Source: Myxococcales bacterium (GTDB lineage: Bacteria > Myxococcota > UBA4151). Taken from it: a stretch of DNA of 64,000 nt. Each line of letters starts with the position of its first letter. Positions within the stretch are counted from its first letter, which is position 1. Below the pieces are notes generated by a model that made no database searches, had not been told where the DNA came from, and saw only the letters and a list, made by a program, of their open reading frames with translations. Location of the stretch: positions 1 to 64,000 of the forward strand of contig PBND01000043.1 in the NCBI GenBank assembly GCA_002722845.1. The letters are read 5' to 3'. A program made the position numbers and the translations under genes. Below are positions 1 through 56,657 of the stretch, in pieces.

Positions 1-38
1 ACGGTGTGGGTCGTTGTGTGTGGTCTGTCGTTTCTCCC
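1..38 (+). repeat. Variable-region (VR) 3' segment, identical to the template
   Basis: This 38-nt stretch matches 1657-1694 perfectly in inverted orientation. Identity ends at 38: the VR continues tgagcc while the template continues aggccc. Apart from base 1 the segment has no adenine, as expected for the anchor part of a DGR variable region, where adenine-specific mutagenesis cannot act. Base 1 corresponds to the middle A of the last AAC codon of the template, so the mutable part of the VR lies just outside the window. Confidence 0.85.
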
Positions 39-41
39 TGA
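1..41 (+). CDS. 3' end of a probable DGR target gene (C-terminus only)
   Basis: The window opens inside a gene running in from the left. Bases 1-38 are the exact reverse complement of 1657-1694, the 3' part of the DGR template. Read in the phase where the template gives Asn codons, the last residues are GVGRCVWSVVSP followed by TGA at 39-41. That suits the end of a C-type-lectin or formylglycine-enzyme-like variable domain, where the variable region is normally the extreme C-terminus. Phase 1 also stops soon (TGA at 46-48) and phase 2 stays open, so the frame is inferred from the template. Nothing else of the protein is visible, so its class is unproven. Confidence 0.6.
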   Translation, partial: GVGRCVWSVVSP

Positions 42-51
42 GCCTTGATGG

Positions 52-74
52 GTCGTCCGCCGGGGGCGGACGAC
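52..74. promoter_or_regulatory. Perfect 10-bp hairpin just downstream of the VR
   Basis: GTCGTCCGCC (52-61) and GGCGGACGAC (65-74) are perfect inverted arms around a GGG loop, 13 nt beyond the end of VR identity and 11 nt beyond the proposed target stop. In the Bordetella phage DGR a GC-rich hairpin/cruciform in the same place is needed for efficient target recognition, so the same role is inferred here. It is not a typical intrinsic terminator: an A-run, not a T-run, follows on the plus strand, and on the minus strand the T-run precedes the hairpin. Confidence 0.65.
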
Positions 75-88
75 GCCAAAAAAAAAGC

Positions 89-1045
89 TTAGCGGCAGCG
101 CCCAAGGAGCCCCCGGCCTGCCGCCGCTCGGGAGCCCGATTGGGCCTTCAATTTGCCCCATCGCCGGCGCCGCTTGCTGTTGGCTCGCAGGGGCCGATCT
201 CGCTGCACTAAATAACCAAGAAAGGCGATCGGCTCCGAACTGGGGCACAAAAAGGTCTTGTTCAAGTTCGGCCGGAGCCGAAGTTTAGCCAATTCCACTT
301 CGATCTCACGATGCAGATTGATGAGGTCCGCTTTCGAACCGCCAATCAAGAGGTCGTCGACATAGCGAACCCAAGGGAGGCCAGCCGCCTCGATCCGCCG
401 ATCAACAGGCATCAGATACAGGTTGCCGAAATGCTGGCTGGTGAGGTTGCCGACGGGCAGGCCATGGGGCCGAAGGCAGTCAAACAGGCTGTCATCACCA
501 AACCAATGTTGCACTCGCTCGGGGTTGCGACCGTGATCGATGATGCAATCCATGACATCGAGATATTGACGATCTTTGATGAGGCGGCGGAGTTGCGCCT
601 TCAGCAGTTCGTGGTCGAGACTACCAAAGTACTTTTTGATGTCGAGTCGCAACACCCATGGATGGCGCTGAACCAGGCGCCGCGCCCTGCGAAGACCGGC
701 ATCCACACCCAGACCCCGGCGATTGGCGACGCAGCCCGATAAAAGCCTACGCTCAAGTAAAGGCTCGAAAGCGCCACAGAGAATTTGGTGAACCACTCGG
801 TCACGATATGGCGCCGCGCTGATCCAGCGGGGTTTGGGATCGAGAATGTGAAATTCATAGGGATCACTCGGGCACCAGATACCGGCCGCTAAATCTTCTC
901 GGAGCCGAGCCAGTTCGTCACCCAAGCGGGTATGAAAGCGGAGCACGCCTTGCTGGTTTCGCTTGCCCCTCCGGGCCCGTTGAGCCGCTTTGAGGAGTTG
1001 GGGCCACTCCAAGGCCCACGACAATAAGCCCTGGACTCGCCTCAT
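89..1045 (-). CDS. DGR-type reverse transcriptase
   Basis: This 318-residue RNA-directed DNA polymerase would copy the template RNA into adenine-mutagenised cDNA that replaces the VR of the target. Visible RT motifs in order: LRLDIKKYF with catalytic Asp135, GLPVGNLTSQ at 195-204, YVDD at 228-231, then NKTFLC and FLGYL. The VGNLTSQ block is the DGR form of RT motif 4; retrons and group II introns usually have QGxxxSP. Length is normal for DGR RTs. The C-terminus is Arg/Lys-rich, consistent with RNA binding. The ATG overlaps the avd stop by 4 nt (ATGA), so the two are translationally coupled. It faces the target gene convergently, whereas most described DGRs have all parts in one orientation. 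There is no sign of truncation. Confidence 0.93.
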   Translation of the reverse strand: MRRVQGLLSWALEWPQLLKAAQRARRGKRNQQGVLRFHTRLGDELARLREDLAAGIWCPSDPYEFHILDPKPRWISAAPYRDRVVHQILCGAFEPLLERRLLSGCVANRRGLGVDAGLRRARRLVQRHPWVLRLDIKKYFGSLDHELLKAQLRRLIKDRQYLDVMDCIIDHGRNPERVQHWFGDDSLFDCLRPHGLPVGNLTSQHFGNLYLMPVDRRIEAAGLPWVRYVDDLLIGGSKADLINLHREIEVELAKLRLRPNLNKTFLCPSSEPIAFLGYLVQRDRPLRANSKRRRRWGKLKAQSGSRAAAGRGLLGRCR

Positions 1046-1389
1046 GAACGAGATTGAATCGATCGGCGCCAGCCACCGAGTTGTCGACCGATTTCGGCAA
1101 TCTCCGTCGCTGCGTAACCGTACTGCCGTTGCGATAATGCCCGCAGGTCCATGGCCATATGGAGGAGCAAGCGCAGTTCATCCAAGTGCTCATCCGCCTT
1201 CGCTAAAGGGCGGTCCAGTCGTTTGGCATGGCGACTGCGAACCAGGGCCAAACAGAGTTGAGTGCCGGCGGATTGCAGTCGCTCACCCAACTGAAACCGC
1301 AAGCAACGGTCGAACTGGACAGCGTGTCGAGTCAGCCAGAGGTTGAGCTGGTAGCTTCGATCGAGGATGGGAAGGGAAGGGTGCTGCAC
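1042..1389 (-). CDS. avd: Avd-like DGR accessory variability determinant
   Basis: A 115-residue, Arg- and Leu-rich, all-helical protein. In known DGRs Avd forms a pentameric four-helix-bundle barrel that binds the RT and the template RNA. Family-like blocks are LPILDRSYQLNLWL near the start, FQLGERLQ in the middle, and RQYGYAATEIAEIGRQLGGW at the end. I chose the GTG at 1389-1387: it has AGGAG 7 nt upstream and gives the usual Avd length and N-terminus. An ATG at 1446 would add 19 residues with no family resemblance. It overlaps the RT by 4 nt and lies 267 nt downstream of the template. Confidence 0.88.
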   Translation of the reverse strand: MQHPSLPILDRSYQLNLWLTRHAVQFDRCLRFQLGERLQSAGTQLCLALVRSRHAKRLDRPLAKADEHLDELRLLLHMAMDLRALSQRQYGYAATEIAEIGRQLGGWRRSIQSRS

Positions 1390-1656
1390 GCGATGACTCC
1401 TGGGCGTTAAAAGAGACCGATAACCACAGGCAAATGGCCGAGCCACTCGCTCTGCTGTAAAACAAAAGACCCCCGGACAAGGGCGCTCGGCCGCGATTGC
1501 AGCCTACGAGCCCCGACGTCCGAGGAGACCCGCTAAAGCGAGCCTGATTTGCTCCGGTGCCGATGGGCACCGAACCTGCGAGAGCGAGCGCTGAACCTCG
1601 ACTTGGATTCGCCCCACAGCCTTAACCATGGGACCTCGACCGACTGTCGAGGGCCT
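1390..1656 (-). ncRNA. Template-to-avd spacer, probable structured part of the DGR template RNA
   Basis: This 267-nt stretch has no convincing gene. It holds at least two hairpins: CCTCGAC/GTCGAGG (1634-1640 with 1646-1652, 5-nt loop), starting 4 nt from the template end, and CGGTGCC/GGCACCG (1555-1561 with 1566-1572, 4-nt loop). In the Bordetella DGR the RNA downstream of the template is required for cDNA priming and for RT-Avd binding, so a similar role is inferred. The AGGAG for avd is at its lower edge (1397-1401). No clear promoter was found. Confidence 0.45.
1634..1652 (-). promoter_or_regulatory. Hairpin next to the template 3' end
   Basis: CCTCGAC at 1634-1640 pairs with GTCGAGG at 1646-1652 around a 5-nt loop, 4 nt past the end of TR identity. 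Its sequence is unrelated to the VR-side hairpin at 52-74. It has no T-run, so it is not an obvious terminator. It may be a structural element of the template RNA. Confidence 0.4.
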
Positions 1657-1694
1657 GGGAGAAACGACAGACCACACACAACGACCCACACCGT
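1657..1694 (-). repeat. TR copy of the 38-nt inverted repeat
   Basis: Exact reverse complement of 1-38; identity stops at 1657. Because the two copies are inverted, recombination between them could flip the intervening RT-avd cassette; no evidence of such an event is visible. Confidence 0.9.
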
Positions 1695-1800
1695 TGTTGT
1701 TGTTGTTGCGGTTGTTGTTCGTGTTGCGAGCCCCGGAGGGCATATTGTTTGCGTCCGCACCGCAAGGCGCCTATCGCCGAATCCAAGAGGCGACGCCAAT
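1657..1800 (-). other. DGR template region (TR)
   Basis: On the minus strand, 1725-1693 reads AAC ACG AAC AAC AAC CGC and then five more AAC codons, so nine Asn codons in eleven. AAC is the signature codon of DGR templates, since randomising its two adenines gives a wide set of residues without stops. The 3' part, 1694-1657, is the exact reverse complement of 1-38 and is free of adenine after its first base. The phase reads RNTNNNRNNNNNGVGRC, like the variable end of C-type-lectin targets. The upstream boundary cannot be fixed because the mutable VR is off-window; 1800 is a guess and the hard limit is the argJ stop at 1855. A TAG in this phase (1773-1771) is harmless in a template. Confidence 0.85.
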
Positions 1801-1854: not shown

Positions 1855-3054
1855 CTAAGTCGTGTACTCGCTGTTTAAGGTCACGTAGTTGTGGCCCAGA
1901 TCGCAGGTCCACAGGCGCCGGCCTTTGTCGCCGTTGTTGAGATCGAGGACAAAGCCGTAGCGGCGCTTTTCCATGAGCGCCGAACAGTGAGCCCAATCGG
2001 CCGCCACGGGCATGCCCGCTTCGAAGAGCAAGATCGATTCGCCCTCGGCGGTGAGATGGAGCCGGGCTTTGTCCGGGTCGAACTGGGCTCGGCTGCGGCC
2101 CGCCGCCGCCAAAATCCGCCCCCAGTTGGGATCGGCGCCGTGAAAGGCCGTCTTGCACAATAAACTGGTCGCCACGGCCCGGGCCGCATCGTCGGCCTGG
2201 TCTTTGGTGGCGGCCCCGCTCACTTGGATCTCCACCAAACAGCGAGCCCCCTCGCCGTCGGCTACCATCTGCTGGGCGACGCTGCGGCAACAGGCGAGCA
2301 GCGCCCGCTGAATCTCGGCCAGGGTGTTTTCGCTCAGCGCCTCGCCCCCATCGGGGCACAGCAGCAGGGCCGTGTCGTTGGTGCTGGTGTCCCCATCCAC
2401 CACGATGGCATTAAAGCTTTTTCGCACCACCCGGTCCCAGAGATCGGCCAGCAACAACTTGGGCAAAGGCGCATCGGTGATGGCAAAAGCCAACATGGTG
2501 GCCAGGTTGGGGGCGATCATCCCGGCCCCTTTGCCCACCACCGTCACCGTGTAGGAACCCACCGTGGCGCTCTGGATTTTGGGCCCTTGATCCGTGGTCA
2601 TGATGGCCTGGGCAAAAGCCATCAAGCCTTCGTTGCCGTCATTTAACTGGGAAAAAGCCGCCGGCAGGCCGCCCAACAAAGCCTCGGCGTCGAGGGGGCG
2701 ACCGATGACCCCGGTGCTCGCCACCTGGATCTCATAGGCCGGACAACTTAACTGGCTCGCCACCTGCTGGGCTGTGGCCTCCGCCGCCGCCATCCCCGCC
2801 GGGCCCGTGCAGGCATTGGCGTTGCCCGAGTTCACCACCACGGCCCGGCACCGCTCGCCCGCGCCGTGGGCTCGGCTCAATTGAACCGGCGCAGCCACCA
2901 CTTGGTTTTGGGTAAAGCGGGCCGCCAAAAGGCCGCTTTTTTCGGCCACGATGAGCCCTAAATCCAGTTGCCCTTCGCCCTTTAAGCCGCAGTGCACGCC
3001 GCTCAGGCGGAAGCCGGGGACAGCCTTCGCCCCCTCGAGCATCGAGATGGTCAT
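1855..3054 (-). CDS. argJ: Bifunctional ornithine acetyltransferase / N-acetylglutamate synthase ArgJ
   Basis: A 399-residue cytoplasmic enzyme of arginine biosynthesis that moves the acetyl group from N-acetylornithine to glutamate and, when bifunctional, also acetylates glutamate with acetyl-CoA. Family blocks are clear: VVVNSGNANACTGPAG near residue 75, KGAGMIAPNLATMLAF around 175-190 with the Thr where the precursor self-cleaves, and DGDTSTNDT after it. Length matches the family. The ATG has AGAGGG 4 nt upstream. It lies upstream of the DGR template on the same strand, so read-through from argJ could supply template RNA. A divergent 128-bp gap separates it from the metalloprotease operon. 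Whether it is mono- or bifunctional cannot be told from sequence. Confidence 0.95.
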   Translation of the reverse strand: MTISMLEGAKAVPGFRLSGVHCGLKGEGQLDLGLIVAEKSGLLAARFTQNQVVAAPVQLSRAHGAGERCRAVVVNSGNANACTGPAGMAAAEATAQQVASQLSCPAYEIQVASTGVIGRPLDAEALLGGLPAAFSQLNDGNEGLMAFAQAIMTTDQGPKIQSATVGSYTVTVVGKGAGMIAPNLATMLAFAITDAPLPKLLLADLWDRVVRKSFNAIVVDGDTSTNDTALLLCPDGGEALSENTLAEIQRALLACCRSVAQQMVADGEGARCLVEIQVSGAATKDQADDAARAVATSLLCKTAFHGADPNWGRILAAAGRSRAQFDPDKARLHLTAEGESILLFEAGMPVAADWAHCSALMEKRRYGFVLDLNNGDKGRRLWTCDLGHNYVTLNSEYTT

Positions 3055-3203
3055 GATCCCTCTCCGGCGCCTTCCTAGCCTGCTTCGCTGCGCTGGGAAA
3101 CCGGTGCTGGCTTTTCGCGGCCATCGGACACTTGCCCGAAAAGGACCTGCGCCCTTAAAAAGGGCGTGCTACACCACGATGGGTGCCAGCCCTGAGGTTT
3201 CAC

Positions 3204-4604
3204 GTGCTTGCTTTGTCGCTCCGCCTTGTTTCGGTTTGGGCGCTGATCGGTCTCAGCGCCGGTTCCGCGTGGGCGAGCCTGTGCTCCAACGACGCCCAAT
3301 GCAGCCGAGCCTGGGAGCGTTGCCTTTCAGGCCACGGCATCTCCAGCCAATGCGGCCCCGAGCCCAAGCTGCTGAACTACAAATGGCAACTCATCGGTGA
3401 AAGCGGCAGCAACTGTGGCTTTACCGAGACCGTCCGCCTCACCGGCAATTATGGCGAATGCACCACCGACAGTGATTGCAGCGACGACCGAGTCTGCGCC
3501 CAGGGATTTTGCCGCCAAGAACGCTGCGTGGGCCGGGTCAGCTATTATGTGGATCCGGCCGGCAGCGATGATTTTTCGTCGGCGGAGCGCAGCAAATCAA
3601 CCCAAGCGGTGGAAGATGCCATGCGCAGTTGGAAGCTGGTGCCCTGTACCGTCTGGGACGCAGCCTCCCGAGACGTGCCCGACAACATGACCTGGAGCGC
3701 CGCCAACGATGGCCTCAACAAGTTCTTCTTCATGGAGGAGGGCTTTCGGGGCCTGGGCGGGCCCAGCACCCTGGGCATCACCGTCTCCCACTTCCAAGGG
3801 GGCGGCTCCCCCACCAGCGACGCCGACATCGTCTTTAACGGCCAAGATCACCGCTGGACCAGCCGGGACGCCGGCAGCGGCAGTACGGATATTTTTTCCG
3901 TCGCTCTGCACGAGATCGGTCACTTTTTGGGCCTGGGTCACCCCTGTGAACTGGCCCAAGGGGACTGCTCCGTGGACGCGGTCATGAACCCCACCTGGAG
4001 CGGCCAGCCCGAAGTGGGCCCCCGCCCCAGCGATGCTCTGGGCGTCTGCGAGCTCTATCCCGGCGTTCGCCCCCCGGTGGACGACGGCAGCATGCGCTTG
4101 GGCGAGCCCTGCACCACCGATTGCGAATGCGCTTCGGGGATCTGCCGCTACGGCCAATGCAGCCGTCGCTGCCGCATCGATGACCCCTGCCCCCAGGCCG
4201 GCGGCACCAAATGCGTGCTGGCCCGCAACGGGGAAGGCCTGTGCATGAGCCCGGTCTTCGTGGGCGAAGGCCAAGCCAAATACCCCCTGGGTGCCCAGTG
4301 CTCCCCCCGGGAGGAGCACAAGTGTGAAAGCGGTCGATGCACCTTTGTCGACATCCGTGGAGTTCGCTATGGTCTCTGCACCACCGCGTGCTCCGATGAT
4401 GCCGACTGTTCCCCAGGTACGGTCTGTCGGGACGGCAGTTGTCTCTTAGACGACCAGGTGGCTGAGCCCTGCACCTCGGGACCCGATCCCGTGGATCCAG
4501 GCGAGGGCTGCTCCTGCCAAGGGAGCGGCTCGGGTCTGGCCTTATTGATGATGGGCGGCGCGTTGTTTCTGCGACGACGCCGCGAGAGGAGTTCGTTCCC
4601 ATGA
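3204..4604 (+). CDS. Secreted matrixin-like metalloprotease with Cys-rich repeats and MYXO-CTERM-like tail
   Basis: An exported zinc protease. After a signal peptide ending near SAWA come Cys-rich segments with the pattern C-x5-CS-x4-C, then the catalytic domain with HEIGHFLGLGH (three zinc ligands) and a Met-turn (AVMNP). More Cys-rich modules follow, and the tail is CSC, a hydrophobic stretch and RRRRERS, which resembles the MYXO-CTERM surface-sorting signal. I prefer the GTG at 3204 (GAGG 6 nt upstream, compact signal peptide) over an upstream GTG at 3183. It overlaps the next gene by 4 nt (ATGA). Substrate is unknown. Its partner at 5152-7140 has the same layout, suggesting duplication. 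Confidence 0.85.
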   Translation: MLALSLRLVSVWALIGLSAGSAWASLCSNDAQCSRAWERCLSGHGISSQCGPEPKLLNYKWQLIGESGSNCGFTETVRLTGNYGECTTDSDCSDDRVCAQGFCRQERCVGRVSYYVDPAGSDDFSSAERSKSTQAVEDAMRSWKLVPCTVWDAASRDVPDNMTWSAANDGLNKFFFMEEGFRGLGGPSTLGITVSHFQGGGSPTSDADIVFNGQDHRWTSRDAGSGSTDIFSVALHEIGHFLGLGHPCELAQGDCSVDAVMNPTWSGQPEVGPRPSDALGVCELYPGVRPPVDDGSMRLGEPCTTDCECASGICRYGQCSRRCRIDDPCPQAGGTKCVLARNGEGLCMSPVFVGEGQAKYPLGAQCSPREEHKCESGRCTFVDIRGVRYGLCTTACSDDADCSPGTVCRDGSCLLDDQVAEPCTSGPDPVDPGEGCSCQGSGSGLALLMMGGALFLRRRRERSSFP

Positions 4605-5152
4605 GAAGTCTTTTGCTGTTGAGCAGCCTTTGTGTGGCCAGCGCCGCCCAAGCCACCGTCGTCTTGAAAATGGACCGGGCCGAGATGACCCAGATGAGCG
4701 ATGACGTGCTGATGGTTCGAGTCGGTGCCCAGCGGGTGGTGGAAGAACAACCCGGCGCCCTGGTGACCCTGACCGATCTGGAAGTCCTCGAAAGCTTCAA
4801 AGGCAAGTACGAGGCCGGCGACACCGTGCTCTTGCAGCAAGCCGGCGGGGTGAAGGGTGACTGGGTGATGCACATCCCCGGCAAGAACACCTACCGTTTC
4901 GGTGAAACTTTGGTGCTCTTTTTAAATCGTCACCGAGACCGGGTGGTGCCCGTGGGCGTCGGCATCGGCCGCATGGTGGTCGAGGGGGAAGGCGACAGTG
5001 CCCTGTTGAAGGAAGAGTACGGTGATGTGGCCTTCGCTGAGCGTAACCCCAAAGGGAAAATGCGCTTCATGCACGGACCCCCGCCGAGCAAGCCCGTGAA
5101 ACTCAGCGTCTTTCGCCGCTGGATCAGCAGTCTCTTGGAGGGCTCGCGCTGA
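4601..5152 (+). CDS. Small exported protein between the two metalloproteases
   Basis: A 183-residue protein with a signal peptide (cleavage after QA near residue 18) and one predicted beta-rich domain. The pattern VLESFKGKYEAGDTVLLQQ then FGETLVLFLNR resembles exported myxobacterial proteins found beside metalloproteases; I know no assigned function. It has no Cys in the mature part and no transmembrane segment. It overlaps the upstream protease by 4 nt and its TGA overlaps the next ATG by one base, so the three genes form a translationally coupled operon. A chaperone, inhibitor or adaptor for the proteases is a guess. Confidence 0.75.
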   Translation: MRSLLLLSSLCVASAAQATVVLKMDRAEMTQMSDDVLMVRVGAQRVVEEQPGALVTLTDLEVLESFKGKYEAGDTVLLQQAGGVKGDWVMHIPGKNTYRFGETLVLFLNRHRDRVVPVGVGIGRMVVEGEGDSALLKEEYGDVAFAERNPKGKMRFMHGPPPSKPVKLSVFRRWISSLLEGSR

Positions 5153-7140
5153 TGCGTCTTCTCCTCGTCATGACCGCCTTAAGCCTCGCCACCCCGGCGG
5201 CGGCTTGGCAGGCGCAGATCGGCAAGTGGAGCCTCGATGGCTCGCCCAACATCGCCTACCGCGTGAACACCCGCGGGGCTCCCGGCATCGCCGGCGACTC
5301 GGATCTGCAAGCCATTCGAAACTCCTTCGACAGTTGGAGTGGTGTGAGTTGCTCCACCATCAACCTGGTGGAGTCTGGGACCACGAACAATTTACCCAAC
5401 GCCCGCCGGGACAACGTGAACAATGTTTGGTTTGAAACCCGTGCCAATGCTTGGAGTTATGGCTCCGGCACCCTGGGCATCACCGGGACCTCCTTCTCGG
5501 GCTTTGGTTGTCGGGGCAATGGTCGGCCCGCTCGGGATTGCTGGATCGTCGATGCCGATGTGCAGTTCAATGCGGTGCAACACGCAGACGGCTGGAGCAC
5601 CAACGGGCGCGGCGGCTTGGACGTGGAGTCCATCTCCGTCCACGAGATCGGGCACAGTCTCGGCCTCGATCACCCCTGCGAAAACTGCACCGTCGATGCG
5701 GTGATGACCCCGTCGTATGTGGGCTATCCCTTTCGCTATCCCCGCCAGGATGACACCAACGCCGTTTGCAGTCTTTATCCCGGTGAGCGGGGCGGCCTCG
5801 GTTGGGGCTGCAACCGAGACTCCGACTGCAATTCCCGTATTTGCCTGGATGACGGTTCCAACGATTACTGCACCGTGACCTGTGGGAACTGCCCGGACGG
5901 CTACGAGTGTCGGGCCGACAATGGTCGCAATGTCTGCCAACGGGCGGCCGCTGGCAGTGGCGCGGCCCAGCAAGGCGAAAGCTGTGCTGGCGGTCGGGCC
6001 TGCGGACCGGGCCTGCTGTGCCTGGGCGATCAAAACGACGCCACCTGCTATGCCGAGTGCGACCGGGGCAATTGCGAGGCCGGCTTTATTTGCGAAACCT
6101 TCTCATCCAATGGGCAAAACATCTCCATTTGCTTGCCCGGTGGCACCACTGCTGAAGGGGAGCCATGCGATTCGCTGTATGCCTGCGCGGCGGGCCTGGA
6201 ATGCGCCCCTGTGGGTCGTAGCTATGTTTGTGCCAGAGGCTGCCGGAGCGACAGCGATTGCAACGAGCGCGAGAACTGTCAGGAGTTGACCCGGCCCGGC
6301 ATCGACACGGTCCAGGTCTGTGTGGAGTCCAACACCGCCCTCGAAGGGGAGAGTTGTCAGCGTAAGCGTTGCGCCGATGGTCTGACCTGCTTGAGTGATG
6401 CGGGCGAACGGCTTTGCTTTCGCAACTGTCGCAGTCGGGCCGACTGCAGCTCGGGCCTCGACTGCATCGAGATCAGCGATACGATCTCCATCTGCTATGC
6501 CAACAACTGCACCGAAGACCGGGACTGCGAGCGGGGTAAAATCTGCCTCGAAGGCAGTTGCGTGGACGAGACCGGTGGCTGCCGAGCCGATACCGAATGC
6601 CGCCGGGGTGAGCTCTGTGAAAACGGTGAATGCACGCCCTTCGAAAGCAATGGTGATCTGCCGGACAACGAACGCTGCGCCGACGATGGCGACTGCGTGT
6701 CGGGTCGCTGTGCAGCCATTGGCTCCACTCGGGTTTGTCGCCCCGGCTGCGATCGCCGCCTGGGGCACTTCGAATGCCCCGAGGGCTTTGGCTGCATCCC
6801 CGACGATGAAGGCAATGGCTATTGCGAGCGCGGCGCCGACGAAGGGGGCCAAAGCATCGGTAGCCCCTGCAGCAGCGCCATCGAATGCCGCCAAGGCATC
6901 TGTGGCAGCGACTGGGGCTTTGGTGGCGAATGTCTCACCTGGTGTGGCGAGAACTTCATCTGTCCCACGGGCTATCTCTGCGATTCGGCCAACAACCCCA
7001 TGCCCGGGCTCTGTGTGCCCGAAGGGGGCGGTGTCGCCCCCGGTCTGGCCTGTGCCTGTGAGGGCACGACACCGGACTTCTGGTTCATGGGATTAGGACT
7101 GCTCGCAGTGCTCGGTTGGCGTCGCCGCCGCTCAGCCTAA
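5152..7140 (+). CDS. Second secreted matrixin-like metalloprotease with many Cys-rich modules
   Basis: A 662-residue exported zinc protease. Signal peptide ends near PAAAW; the catalytic domain around residues 160-185 has HEIGHSLGLDH and a Met-turn (AVMTP). Then come about 400 residues of Cys-rich modules (C-x-SDSDC-like, C-x3-G-x2-C) and a tail of CAC, a hydrophobic stretch and RRRRSA, again MYXO-CTERM-like. Same architecture as the protease at 3204-4604 but with a longer Cys-rich stalk. The modules probably form disulphide-bonded spacers that present the protease at the cell surface. Its 3' end overlaps the convergent FAD gene by 9 nt. Confidence 0.85.
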   Translation: MRLLLVMTALSLATPAAAWQAQIGKWSLDGSPNIAYRVNTRGAPGIAGDSDLQAIRNSFDSWSGVSCSTINLVESGTTNNLPNARRDNVNNVWFETRANAWSYGSGTLGITGTSFSGFGCRGNGRPARDCWIVDADVQFNAVQHADGWSTNGRGGLDVESISVHEIGHSLGLDHPCENCTVDAVMTPSYVGYPFRYPRQDDTNAVCSLYPGERGGLGWGCNRDSDCNSRICLDDGSNDYCTVTCGNCPDGYECRADNGRNVCQRAAAGSGAAQQGESCAGGRACGPGLLCLGDQNDATCYAECDRGNCEAGFICETFSSNGQNISICLPGGTTAEGEPCDSLYACAAGLECAPVGRSYVCARGCRSDSDCNERENCQELTRPGIDTVQVCVESNTALEGESCQRKRCADGLTCLSDAGERLCFRNCRSRADCSSGLDCIEISDTISICYANNCTEDRDCERGKICLEGSCVDETGGCRADTECRRGELCENGECTPFESNGDLPDNERCADDGDCVSGRCAAIGSTRVCRPGCDRRLGHFECPEGFGCIPDDEGNGYCERGADEGGQSIGSPCSSAIECRQGICGSDWGFGGECLTWCGENFICPTGYLCDSANNPMPGLCVPEGGGVAPGLACACEGTTPDFWFMGLGLLAVLGWRRRRSA

Positions 7141-43653: not shown

Positions 43654-45621
43654 TTAGGGACAGACGCCCATCCCGGGCGGCATGGGCATGCACCCACCCG
43701 CCATGCAGCAGGGGGTCTCTTCGGGGCATGGAGGGAGGCCATCGCCGCATTGCTCAAGGGGGCCAGGTGTGCAGACACCATCGATGCAAGTTCCGCCATC
43801 TTGGCAGGGGTTCTCCTCGGAGCATTCGTTCGGCGGTGCGCAGGCTCCAGTCATGCAGACGAGGCCGTCGGGACACTCGGGCAAGCCATCGCCGCATTCC
43901 TCAAGAGGTCCGGGTGCGCAGATGCCGTCGATGCAGGTTCCGCCATCTTGGCAGGGGTTTTCATCAGAACATTCGGTCGGCGGTGTGCAGGCTCCAGCCA
44001 TGCAGATTTCACCCTCCGCGCAATCGTCATCGGCTTCGCAGGGCACAGGGTCACAGTTGGTCTCGTCGTAAATACAGCCACAAGCCATCATGTCGCAGCG
44101 GTCGATGGTACAGGCTCGTCCATCGTCGCAATCCAGATCACTCTTGCAAGCGGTACGGAGGTCTTGGGGAAAGACGGGGGGATCTACCTCTTCCGGGAAT
44201 TCCACCCGGCGATTGATGGGGGAGCCACAGGTCACTTTGACCGTTGAAGATGGGTTCAATTCCGGGCCGACGATGCGTACATTTTGTGGGTTTTCGAGCA
44301 CATGCGCTCTCGATAACTCGAGTGTCACCTGCCCAAAAGCCCGGGTTCGAGCGGTGCCGAGACCGTTATTGTCTGCTCGTTCTGTGTAGACGCTGTGCTC
44401 GGTTTTGACCTCGGGGGTCCCTAGGTTGTGCAGGGGTTGTCCGATGGTGAAGGTTTGAAAGGTTGCGACCGTGTTGTAATGACCCGCAAAGCGGCTATGT
44501 GCGACGCCGTCACTCCAGAAGCGGCCACTGTCGAGTTCGCAAGCAAGGCCAAGGCCAATACTGCAGCCTGGGAGTTCGAGGCCGCCCATGTTGACGCCGA
44601 AGGTGAGGTTGCAACTGACGGTGGGGGCTTGGGTACTGCAACTGATCGCACTGCCGCCGATCGCCGCCTTGCTTTTATCTTCCTGGGAGTAGTTCGTGCC
44701 ACCAGAGAAGTCAGGGAGTCGAAGGGTGACCTTCGATTGTGCATTGGCATTTTGATTGCCTAAGAGGGGCAGGGTGGTGCTGTAAGCACGACTTTGCAAA
44801 AGGGAATTCGCATGAGATGTGCCACCGACTTGTACGGAGACCTGGCCGCAGGCACCGGCTCCATCTTCGGCGAAAGCGCAGCGAAGGGCTGGGCTGACCG
44901 ACCGGCGACAACTGTTGCCTGCTATGGCCGAAACAGAGCCATTTCGCGCGACGCCCATGCCACCACATCCCGCTGTCGATCGTTGCTCATTGCTATAGGC
45001 GTATCCCGTGCCTGTGCATGCCTCACCGACGCGGGCAAAACCTGCCGTAGGCCGATCCTCGGTGATGCTTTGCGGCGAGACGACAAAGCTGCAGGAGACG
45101 AGGCATTGATGGCATCGACCGACGGTGGCTTCGTTGGCGAGGACGGTTAGCGCCTGTGTTCCCAGAAGTTCCCGGTCTCTAAGGTAGGCACCGTAAAGAA
45201 AGGCATGGACTCGATTCGTTGGGTCGTAGGCGCGAAAATACACGAGGGCCTCGAACCAGCGCAATTGGCGGTCCATTCCCTGCTCCTCGAACTGGTCTGC
45301 GTAGGCCTCGATATTTTCATTCACACCCGGCGGCATCACGACCAGATGTTGATGAACTCGGACCGGGCGGCTCACGCTTTCACCCAGGATGGAAATATCG
45401 CCTTGAGCAAGGGAGGCCATCATCGATTCGCTCAAGTCTGTGAGTCCTTGTCGTTCAAGGTACTCTTTCGCTGAGATGATCTCGCCAGCATCGAGCTGAC
45501 TCGCCGTCTCATAAAGTGCCCCTTGGCTGCGACGTTCCCAGGCTGCAGGGGCAGTGGGCTCCTGAGGCAGCTGCTCAATGCAGCCTGTCAGCGTGATGGA
45601 AAAGACAATGAGCATCCTCAT
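43654..45621 (-). CDS. Lipoprotein with EGF-like Cys-rich C-terminal repeats
   Basis: A 655-residue lipoprotein (signal ends LTGC). N-terminal ~450 residues are of no recognised family. The C-terminal ~200 residues are Cys-rich: two near-identical copies of PCQDGGTCIDG plus PGPLE-x-CGDGLP units, together with CDDGRACTIDRCD and CAEGEICMAGAC modules. These resemble EGF-like or notch-like disulphide modules of surface adhesins. It overlaps the preceding minus-strand gene (ATGA) so the two lipoproteins form an operon. Secreted or surface function inferred. Confidence 0.75.
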   Translation of the reverse strand: MRMLIVFSITLTGCIEQLPQEPTAPAAWERRSQGALYETASQLDAGEIISAKEYLERQGLTDLSESMMASLAQGDISILGESVSRPVRVHQHLVVMPPGVNENIEAYADQFEEQGMDRQLRWFEALVYFRAYDPTNRVHAFLYGAYLRDRELLGTQALTVLANEATVGRCHQCLVSCSFVVSPQSITEDRPTAGFARVGEACTGTGYAYSNEQRSTAGCGGMGVARNGSVSAIAGNSCRRSVSPALRCAFAEDGAGACGQVSVQVGGTSHANSLLQSRAYSTTLPLLGNQNANAQSKVTLRLPDFSGGTNYSQEDKSKAAIGGSAISCSTQAPTVSCNLTFGVNMGGLELPGCSIGLGLACELDSGRFWSDGVAHSRFAGHYNTVATFQTFTIGQPLHNLGTPEVKTEHSVYTERADNNGLGTARTRAFGQVTLELSRAHVLENPQNVRIVGPELNPSSTVKVTCGSPINRRVEFPEEVDPPVFPQDLRTACKSDLDCDDGRACTIDRCDMMACGCIYDETNCDPVPCEADDDCAEGEICMAGACTPPTECSDENPCQDGGTCIDGICAPGPLEECGDGLPECPDGLVCMTGACAPPNECSEENPCQDGGTCIDGVCTPGPLEQCGDGLPPCPEETPCCMAGGCMPMPPGMGVCP

Positions 45622-54233: not shown

Positions 54234-56657
54234 TCATTCGCCATGGGCCGAACGGGTCTCAGCGCTAATCGCATGATCCCAAAGAAGCACCGCGTCGAGA
54301 TCGCCGGTAAAGGCTCGCTCTAAGCAGGCTTCATCGGCGCCACAGCCACCCATGCGTAGAGGTGCTACATTGTTCCTGAGGGTGCCTGTTGCTGGGGCAA
54401 AGCCCGCATTCTGGCCCCGCACAAACAAGCTGAGACCCTGGCCGTCATAGACCGTGCAGAGTTGATTCCACTGGCCGAAGGAGACCGGCATGGTGCCATC
54501 GACACGGACCTGACCTTCAAGGGTGGCGATGCTCACCCAGGGGCGTTGATTACTGGGTTCGATGGCCAGGCGATAGGAGCCCCCCTTCTCGACCACGATA
54601 AAGCGCTCTCGCTCCTGCTGGGCCAAGGGGCGCACCCAAGCGCAAAGGGAGAAGGTATCAAAGCCATCGAGTCGGTCATGATCGGCGATCTCCACATAAG
54701 CTCCATCTTGGAAAGCCAAGGCGCCGGCAGGCACTTGGCGCCGATCCGCCACCATGGCCGCACCCTGGTTGATGCCGTGGTGCTCATTGCCAGAGGAATC
54801 GAGAATATCACCGTCCATGGGATAGCAGGCCATGCTGCCGAGACAGGCGGCCCCTGAACGGCAGGTGTTCGAACAAAAGTCATTGTCCTCGTCGTTACCA
54901 TCATCGCAGTCCTCAACACCGAACCAGATGATCCCATCGCCACAGGTCGCCCTTAGACAAGCATCGGTGCAGGCGTCTTCGTCGCCGTCCTGGCCGTCAT
55001 CACATTCCTCGCCGGCGAAATCATCGAGGATATTGTCGCCACAGACCGGCTCGCTGCAGTCTCGGCGGCAGGCATCTCGACCTTCTAGGTTGCCATCGTC
55101 GCAGGCTTCGTCGTGGTCGACGACGCCATCGCCACACGCCGGGCGTCGGCAATCGGGACGACAGCCGTCTGTAGGATCTTCGTTACCATCATCGCATTCT
55201 TCATCGTGATCGACGCGACCATTGCCACAGGCTGCTAACTGACAGGAGTTGCGACAGCCATCGCTGTCCACGTCATTGCCATCGTCACAGCCCTCGTAGC
55301 CGAGTTCACCAGCGCCCCGATTGGTGCGAAGAATTCCATCGCCACACCGGGCCCGTCGACAGTCTCGGGTGCAGTCATCGCCATCTTCGTCATTGCCATC
55401 ATCGCATTCTTCGATCCCGGCCCGCACGATGTTGTCGCCGCAGCGGGCGGCGACGCAGTCAGTGGTGCAGCCATCGCCGTCGACGCCGTTGCCATCGTCG
55501 CATTCTTCGACGCCGGCCCGGACATGGCCGTCGCCGCAGCGGGGCAACTCGCAGCGAGGCGTACATTCATCGCCGCCTTCCCGGTTGCCGTCATCGCAGA
55601 ACTCCCGGCCCGGGTGGAGAATTCCATCGCCACATTCGGCTTCTGCACACTGGTTGGTGCAGTCATCGGTGTTGACTCGATTGCCATCATCACAGGCTTC
55701 GTAGCCGATCTCGTTGTCGTTCAGGTCCTGCCGCACGAGCCCATCGCCACAGCGGGCAGAGATGCAGTTGTTGAGGCAGCCGTCGAAGGGGTCATCGTTG
55801 CCATCATCGCATTCTTCCCCTGGTCCTCGTAGACCGTCGCCACAGGCCTCGAGTCGGCAGGTGAATGAGCAGCCATCGCCGCTAAAGGTGTTGCCGTCGT
55901 CGCATTCCTCGAAGCCCCGTTCACCGGCCTCGATGTCCGTCCGTAGAAAGCCATCGCCACATCGGGCCGGGCTGCAATCGTTCAAGCAGCCATCCACATT
56001 GGTTAAGTTGCCATCATCACAGCGTTCACCTTCGTCGATCACCCCGTCACCGCAGGGGGGCAATTGACAGGCCTCATTGCAGTCCTCGCCCCCGTCACAT
56101 CCTTCACCGGGTTGCACCGTGCCATTGCCGCAGCGGGCCCGCTGGCACTGACCGTTGCAAAGGTCTTCCTCGATGAGATTTCCGTCATCGCATTGTTCGC
56201 TGCCCGGGCTGCCCTCGTCCAAATCCAGTCGCTGGATCCCGTCGCCGCAGCGGGCCACAAGGCATCGATGGGTGCAGGCGTCGTGGGCCTCCGCATTGCC
56301 ATCGTCGCAGGCCTCGTAATCTGGCTCGCCTTCAACCCGGTCCAGCCGCAGGACACCATCCCCGCAACGGGCGATGTGGCAACTGTTCAGGCAGTCGTCC
56401 GCGTCGTTGCTGTTGCCATCGTCGCAGGCTTCAAAGCCTTCATCGCCCTCGAGAAGGTCGCCTCGGCGAATCCCATCGCCACAGCGAGCCCGCTGGCACT
56501 GGTCCGTGCAAGCATCGTCGGCCACCGTGTTGTCGTCGTCACATTCTTCGCCGGAATCCAGCAGTCCATCACCACAGACGGGGTCGGGGTCGAGGACGGC
56601 GGGAGCCACCTCACAGCCCATGGCGATGAAACCCAAAATCAGAGAGATACGAGCCAT
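54234..56657 (-). CDS. Giant DUF4215 Cys-rich repeat lipoprotein with C-terminal LamG-like domain
   Basis: An 807-residue lipoprotein (signal ends AMGC). It has 17 tandem repeats of about 35-40 residues (residues about 27-620), each CGDG or CGNG..., then ECDDGN, then a C-x3-C pair: the Myxococcus cysteine-rich repeat (DUF4215). The C-terminal ~190 residues, from [17 protein letters not shown] to the end, resemble a LamG/concanavalin-like lectin domain. It should be an elongated disulphide stalk with a carbohydrate-binding head. The start follows GGAGG and lies 3 nt after the pseudokinase stop, so it is coupled to the kinase pair. Confidence 0.9.

What the first reader, a model, noticed from the sequence alone, without database searches (positions are those of the whole stretch)
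1..1800. Diversity-generating retroelement with its RT-avd-template cassette inverted relative to the target
A DGR-type RT (VGNLTSQ motif 4, YVDD), an Avd-like gene overlapping it by 4 nt, an AAC-rich template and a perfect 38-nt inverted VR/TR match lie together. In most described DGRs the target, avd, template and RT share one strand. Here the template, avd and RT are on the minus strand while the VR end is on the plus strand, so the cassette and target converge and the two 38-nt copies face each other. That geometry affects how the cDNA homes and could allow inversion. The target gene lies just to the left of this window.
Basis: partly seen in the sequence, partly recalled or inferred. Interest (0 to 1): 0.88.

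Follow-up and report, generated by a model that had tools for sequence, protein, structure and literature searches.

The report
Diversity-generating retroelement with oppositely oriented target
The start of this contig carries a bacterial gene-hypermutation cassette (a diversity-generating retroelement) whose machinery points towards, instead of along with, the gene it appears to mutate; this is an uncommon arrangement of a known system, and most of the target gene is missing from the assembly.

Summary
On the minus strand lie an AAC-rich template repeat (TR, ~1657-1758), an Avd gene and a DGR reverse transcriptase, the two genes overlapping by ATGA. Window bases 1-38 (+) are a perfect inverted copy of the TR's adenine-free tail. 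Three features make the left copy the end of a variable repeat (VR): an in-frame stop at the point of divergence (VRs have one within 10 codons in 93% of 274 DGRs, TRs in 17%); a 10-bp GC-rich hairpin 13 nt downstream, as at the BPP-1 target; and an IMH/IMH*-like stretch at 39-48. The contig begins where the first variable adenine would be, so the target and A-to-N changes cannot be seen; no other contig of the bin carries them. Mixed-strand DGRs are known (Schillinger 2012), and inverting the BPP-1 target left homing intact (Guo 2011). Among 274 comparison DGRs one had a VR opposing TR and RT; in this phylum 4 of 9 mix strands. Recombination between the 38-nt copies would break TR and VR, so an invertible switch is unlikely. 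The RT core is intact but its thumb is ~30 residues short, leaving activity uncertain. Verdict: a real DGR, new member of a known kind, rare permutation.

The parts
1..38 (+). 3' end of the variable repeat (VR); adenine-free after base 1; encodes GVGRCVWSVVSP at the C terminus of the off-contig target
   Evidence: exact inverted copy of 1657-1694; in-frame stop follows
39..48 (+). stop codon TGA (39-41) and IMH-like stretch with 4 mismatches to the TR side (IMH*-like)
   Evidence: 48-nt, 92% inverted pair; three of the four mismatches face non-adenine TR bases
52..74 (+). 10-bp GC-rich stem (GTCGTCCGCC/GGCGGACGAC), loop GGG; candidate target-recognition hairpin/cruciform
   Evidence: stems >=10 bp in 0.06% of 60-nt stretches of the window
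89..1045 (-). DGR reverse transcriptase, 318 aa, VGNLTSQ/YVDD; C-terminal thumb shortened
1042..1446 (-). Avd (accessory variability determinant); likely start GTG near 1389
1390..1656 (-). spacer between TR and avd, strongly structured as RNA; candidate Sp region of the TR-RNA
   Evidence: 1440-1780 folded, z -4.1; function inferred from BPP-1
1657..1758 (-). template repeat (TR), AAC-rich (9 AAC codons in a run of 12); 5' boundary not determinable without the VR
   Evidence: 53 codons to the next in-frame stop

Best explanation
A chromosomal diversity-generating retroelement of a bacterium with myxobacterial-type surface proteins. A minus-strand TR-avd-RT unit sits just downstream of argJ and converges on a plus-strand target gene whose last 12 codons, stop codon and recognition hairpin are at the contig start. 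Shown: the parts, their strands, the shared 38-nt tail, the stop asymmetry and the hairpin. Inferred from BPP-1: the TR-spacer RNA is copied by RT-Avd with errors at adenines; the cDNA acts in trans and replaces the VR of the target at the adenine-free IMH-like tail next to the hairpin, whatever the cassette's strand. The opposed arrangement is most likely a neutral permutation.
For: RT: closest solved chain is the BPP-1 RT (E 4e-26), PHROG reverse transcriptase E 1e-65, DGR RTs are the best relatives in genomes and viral contigs, 39 of 43 conserved columns kept. Avd: E 6e-21 to the PHROG 'Avd protein of DGR', E 1.6e-20 to DivGenRetAVD, homologues beside DGR RTs. VR identity: stop directly at divergence versus 53 codons at the TR; hairpin; contig begins at the last AAC codon. 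No room for a co-directional target: the argJ stop lies about 100 nt upstream of the TR. Precedent for TR and VR on opposite strands: L140 and L050, Pseudogulbenkiania NH8B.
Against: The variable part of the VR and the target gene are not in the data, so no adenine-specific mismatches can be shown. The hairpin loop is GGG (3 nt), not the GRNA tetraloop of BPP-1-like phages. Avd scores just under two curated cut-offs (39 vs 40; 73 vs 80 bits). The RT thumb is short (40 residues after FLGY, median 72) and the RT is on a long branch.
Confidence: 0.83

Rival explanations
1. Decayed DGR: anatomy as described, but the RT lost its thumb (perhaps in the rearrangement that brought the VR end next to the RT 3' end), so the cassette no longer diversifies the target. 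This is compatible with the anatomy of the best explanation and differs on activity.
For: RT ends 40 residues after the FLGY motif (median 72 in 347 relatives), without the conserved GH-containing thumb motif; no other frame holds it. Longest end branch in the tree.
Against: 39 of 43 conserved RT columns including the catalytic ones are intact; avd and RT frames are open and overlapped; the TR is still AAC-rich; the contig break at the first variable adenine suits a VR that differs between cells.
Confidence: 0.3
2. Assembly artefact: the 38 nt at the contig end are a false inverted extension and the real target is co-directional or elsewhere.
For: It lies exactly at a contig end of a fragmented, 70%-complete bin.
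Against: The TR copy of the same 38 nt is assembled through, so the assembler resolved repeats of this length and its k-mers across 38/39 should be longer than the repeat (inference); the left flank carries a stop and hairpin that the TR side lacks; argJ occupies the co-directional position.
Confidence: 0.08
3. The facing 38-nt copies form an invertible switch that flips the RT-avd segment.
For: Inverted repeats of 38-48 nt flank 1.6 kb.
Against: No recombinase gene between the repeats; inversion would put the VR beside the spacer and the TR beside the stop and hairpin, disabling both; TR/VR identity is fully explained by DGR homing.
Confidence: 0.02

Closest known systems
BPP-1 DGR (Bordetella phage; mtd-avd-TR-brt)
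   Same: homologous RT, Avd, TR with adenine-rich core and adenine-poor tail, IMH/IMH* partial mismatch, GC-rich hairpin after the VR
   Different: all parts on one strand; order VR-avd-TR-RT; hairpin loop GAAA; here TR-avd-RT with the target opposed
'Inverted' DGRs of DiGReF group 4 (Shewanella baltica OS155, Vibrio sp. RC586, Photobacterium angustum S14; PMC3521204)
   Same: components split over both strands
   Different: there RT alone is flipped against TR, VR and target; here the VR/target is opposite to TR, avd and RT
Pseudogulbenkiania sp. NH8B DGR (PMC3521204)
   Same: VRs on the strand opposite to TR and RT
   Different: those are two extra, more distant VRs beside two co-directional ones; here the opposed VR is adjacent and the only one visible
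L140 (IMGVR_UViG_3300029624_000205)
   Same: TR and RT on one strand and a VR facing the RT 3' end on the other
   Different: also has a co-directional VR; avd on the opposite strand; TR-VR adenine differences visible (13 and 18, none elsewhere)
L047 (G051) and L477 (G175), same phylum
   Same: RT opposite to target; grouped with the window RT in the tree (SH-aLRT 93, with L119)
   Different: avd and TR stay with the target; FGE-type target complete

Membership tests
Diversity-generating retroelement | DGR-clade RT with (I/V/L)GxxxSQ in motif 4 and YxDD | tested here: met
   VGNLTSQ, YVDD; BPP-1 RT top solved match E 4e-26; 39/43 conserved columns
Diversity-generating retroelement | accessory protein (Avd or HRDC) | tested here: met
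   Avd by PHROG E 6e-21, NCBIfam E 1.6e-20 though under its cut-off; aligned with Avds next to DGR RTs
Diversity-generating retroelement | TR/VR near-repeat pair | tested here: met
   38-nt exact, 48-nt 92% inverted pair; VR side truncated by the contig end
Diversity-generating retroelement | TR/VR mismatches confined to TR adenines | not testable with these tools
   the adenine-bearing part of the VR lies beyond contig base 1; not elsewhere in the bin
Diversity-generating retroelement | VR at the C terminus of a C-type-lectin-fold target | tested here: inconclusive
   only the last 12 codons and stop visible; no FGE-sulfatase or DUF1566 gene cut at a contig end was found
Diversity-generating retroelement | GC-rich hairpin 4-34 nt after the VR with GRNA loop (phage DGRs) | tested here: inconclusive
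   10-bp stem at 13 nt met; loop GGG does not match
DiGReF group 4 inverted DGR (TR and RT on different strands) | TR on the strand opposite to RT | tested here: not met
   TR and RT are both on the minus strand

The most novel reading that the evidence does not exclude
In this phylum DGR cassettes are repeatedly broken up over both strands (4 of 9, against 1 of 274 elsewhere), which would mean that template RNA, RT and target are freely uncoupled there and that target orientation, for example relative to replication, is selected independently of the cassette.
Probability: 0.3. Interest if true: 0.5.

Novelty: new member of a known kind. Interest (0 to 1): 0.33.

Why it matters
It adds a natural case in which template, RT and Avd lie on the strand opposite to an adjacent target, supporting the view that DGR cDNA acts in trans. 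Together with three mixed-strand relatives it offers a natural set for testing whether target orientation relative to replication, and not to the cassette, is under selection.

Tried and rejected
Searched the bin for the rest of the VR with adenines wild-carded and for FGE-sulfatase and DUF1566 targets: no candidate at a contig end. A single-protein scan of genome contigs found nothing. One viral scan with the L140 RT returned only itself. A frameshift as the cause of the short RT was checked by reading all three frames: no thumb motif. The invertible-switch reading was rejected on anatomy. GC skew of the 146-kb contig is weakly positive (0.03), which would make the target co-directional with replication, but coding density favours the other strand, so no conclusion. 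Rfam and tRNA scans found nothing in the window. Wu et al. 2018 (large DGR survey) is not held in the paper library.

Full report
What is there. The window begins at base 1 of contig C43 (145,795 bp) of a 2.68-Mb, 92-contig, about 70% complete assembly. On the minus strand, reading 5' to 3', lie argJ (1855-3054; Pfam ArgJ E 2e-126), an AAC-rich stretch (about 1758-1657), a spacer, an Avd-like gene (from 1446 or, by homologue length, about 1389, to 1042) and an RT gene (1045-89); the last two overlap by ATGA. Bases 1-38 of the plus strand repeat the minus-strand sequence 1694-1657 exactly, and this is the only such match in the assembly.

Is it a DGR. The RT's best solved relative is the BPP-1 RT (8ub7, E 4e-26); its relatives in phages include the RTs of BPP-1, VHML and crAss-like phages. 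It keeps 39 of 43 columns that are at least 90% conserved in 105 other DGR-type RTs, including VGNLTSQ and YVDD. The small gene matches the PHROG Avd family (E 6e-21) and NCBIfam DivGenRetAVD (E 1.6e-20, 73 bits against a cut-off of 80). A search of reading frames in the fetched DGR loci gave 215 hits, including Avds beside DGR RTs, with a shared E-x-G-R-x-x-G-G-W ending.

Which copy is template and which is variable. In 274 comparison DGRs an in-frame stop follows within ten codons of the end of the repeat for 93% of VRs and 17% of TRs. The left copy has TGA at the first base of divergence; the right copy runs on for 53 codons, and the argJ stop lies about 100 nt upstream of it. So the right copy is the TR and the left one a VR end. 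After the left copy the pair continues with 6 of 10 bases matching, reminiscent of the IMH/IMH* difference of BPP-1, and a perfect 10-bp GC-rich stem with a GGG loop follows at 52-74 (DNA fold z -3.6). Guo et al. (PMC3240598) describe 7-10-bp GC-rich stems 4-34 bp after VRs with GRNA loops; position and stem fit, the loop does not. Stems of this length occur in 0.06% of 60-nt stretches of the window.

Why the target is missing. The 38-nt copy is adenine-free apart from base 1, the middle A of the last AAC codon. The next base to the left would be the first A of that codon. The contig therefore stops where VR variation should start. That is expected if reads differ there, but it also means that adenine-specific mismatches, the hallmark of DGRs, cannot be shown. 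The bin has no other recognisable piece of the VR. The FGE-sulfatase domains found in the bin reach the end of the profile and are not cut at contig ends, and no DUF1566 (Lcl_C) domain was found.

How unusual is the geometry. I detected TR/VR pairs by adenine-biased mismatches around DGR RTs from genome and viral contigs. Of 274 distinct DGRs, 273 had TR and VR on the RT strand; one (L140) also had a VR facing the RT from the other strand. The order TR-avd-RT without other changes was seen twice, after a co-directional VR, and the full pattern TR> avd> RT> VR< only here. In genomes of the same phylum, however, L047 and L477 have RT opposite to target, avd and TR, and L050 has TR opposite to target and RT, against five DGRs on one strand. 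Counting the window, 4 of 9 versus 1 of 274 gives Fisher p 2e-6. L047 and L477 are sisters and the sample is not random, so this p value overstates the case. The window RT groups with L047, L477 and a Cyanobium RT (SH-aLRT 93), on a long branch. Published precedent: RT opposite to TR/VR in three gammaproteobacteria and two VRs opposite to TR and RT in Pseudogulbenkiania (PMC3521204); 122 cassette patterns in 948 DGRs (PMC6642488).

Mechanism. The most likely working is the BPP-1 one (inferred): TR plus spacer RNA (here strongly structured, z -4.1) is reverse-transcribed by RT-Avd with errors at adenines, and the cDNA replaces the VR beside the hairpin. Since RNA and cDNA act in trans, cassette orientation should not matter: homing into an inverted BPP-1 target was comparable to wild type, and in E. 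coli efficiency followed target orientation relative to replication (PMC12875486). An inversion between the 38-nt copies would leave the VR without its hairpin and stop and the TR without its spacer, so I reject a switch. Open doubt: the RT ends 40 residues after FLGY against a median of 72 and lacks the usual thumb motif; it may be inactive.

Verdict. A real DGR with a convergent target, a new member of a known kind in an uncommon permutation. Novelty rests mainly on the possible excess of mixed-strand DGRs in this phylum.

Noticed in passing
L047:5784-8422; L477:1248-3919: Two same-phylum DGRs (genomes G051, G175) with RT on the strand opposite to FGE-type target, avd and TR, i.e. DiGReF group 4 architecture; sister RTs.
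   Followed up: partly
L050:6796-10235: Same-phylum DGR (G039) with an FGE-type target, an HRDC-like gene and RT on one strand and the TR (23 adenine mismatches, no others) on the opposite strand.
   Followed up: partly
L140:5907-8277: Viral-contig DGR with VRs on both strands served by one TR, and an avd gene inverted against RT.
   Followed up: partly
window 89-300: RT C terminus about 30 residues shorter than in relatives, ending just before the VR hairpin; thumb motif absent in all frames.
   Followed up: partly
window 3183-4604 and 5152-7140: Two metalloprotease-like secreted proteins; the first ends in a MYXO-CTERM type sorting signal, the second has a similar hydrophobic-arginine tail by eye.
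   Followed up: no
window 43738-44006 and 55368-55598: Tandem repeats of 147 and 96 nt (multiples of three) with about two copies each; the proteins were not examined.
   Followed up: no
G015 contigs C70, C122, C123, C201, C271: One same-phylum genome carries several DGR-type RTs or fragments on different contigs.
   Followed up: no
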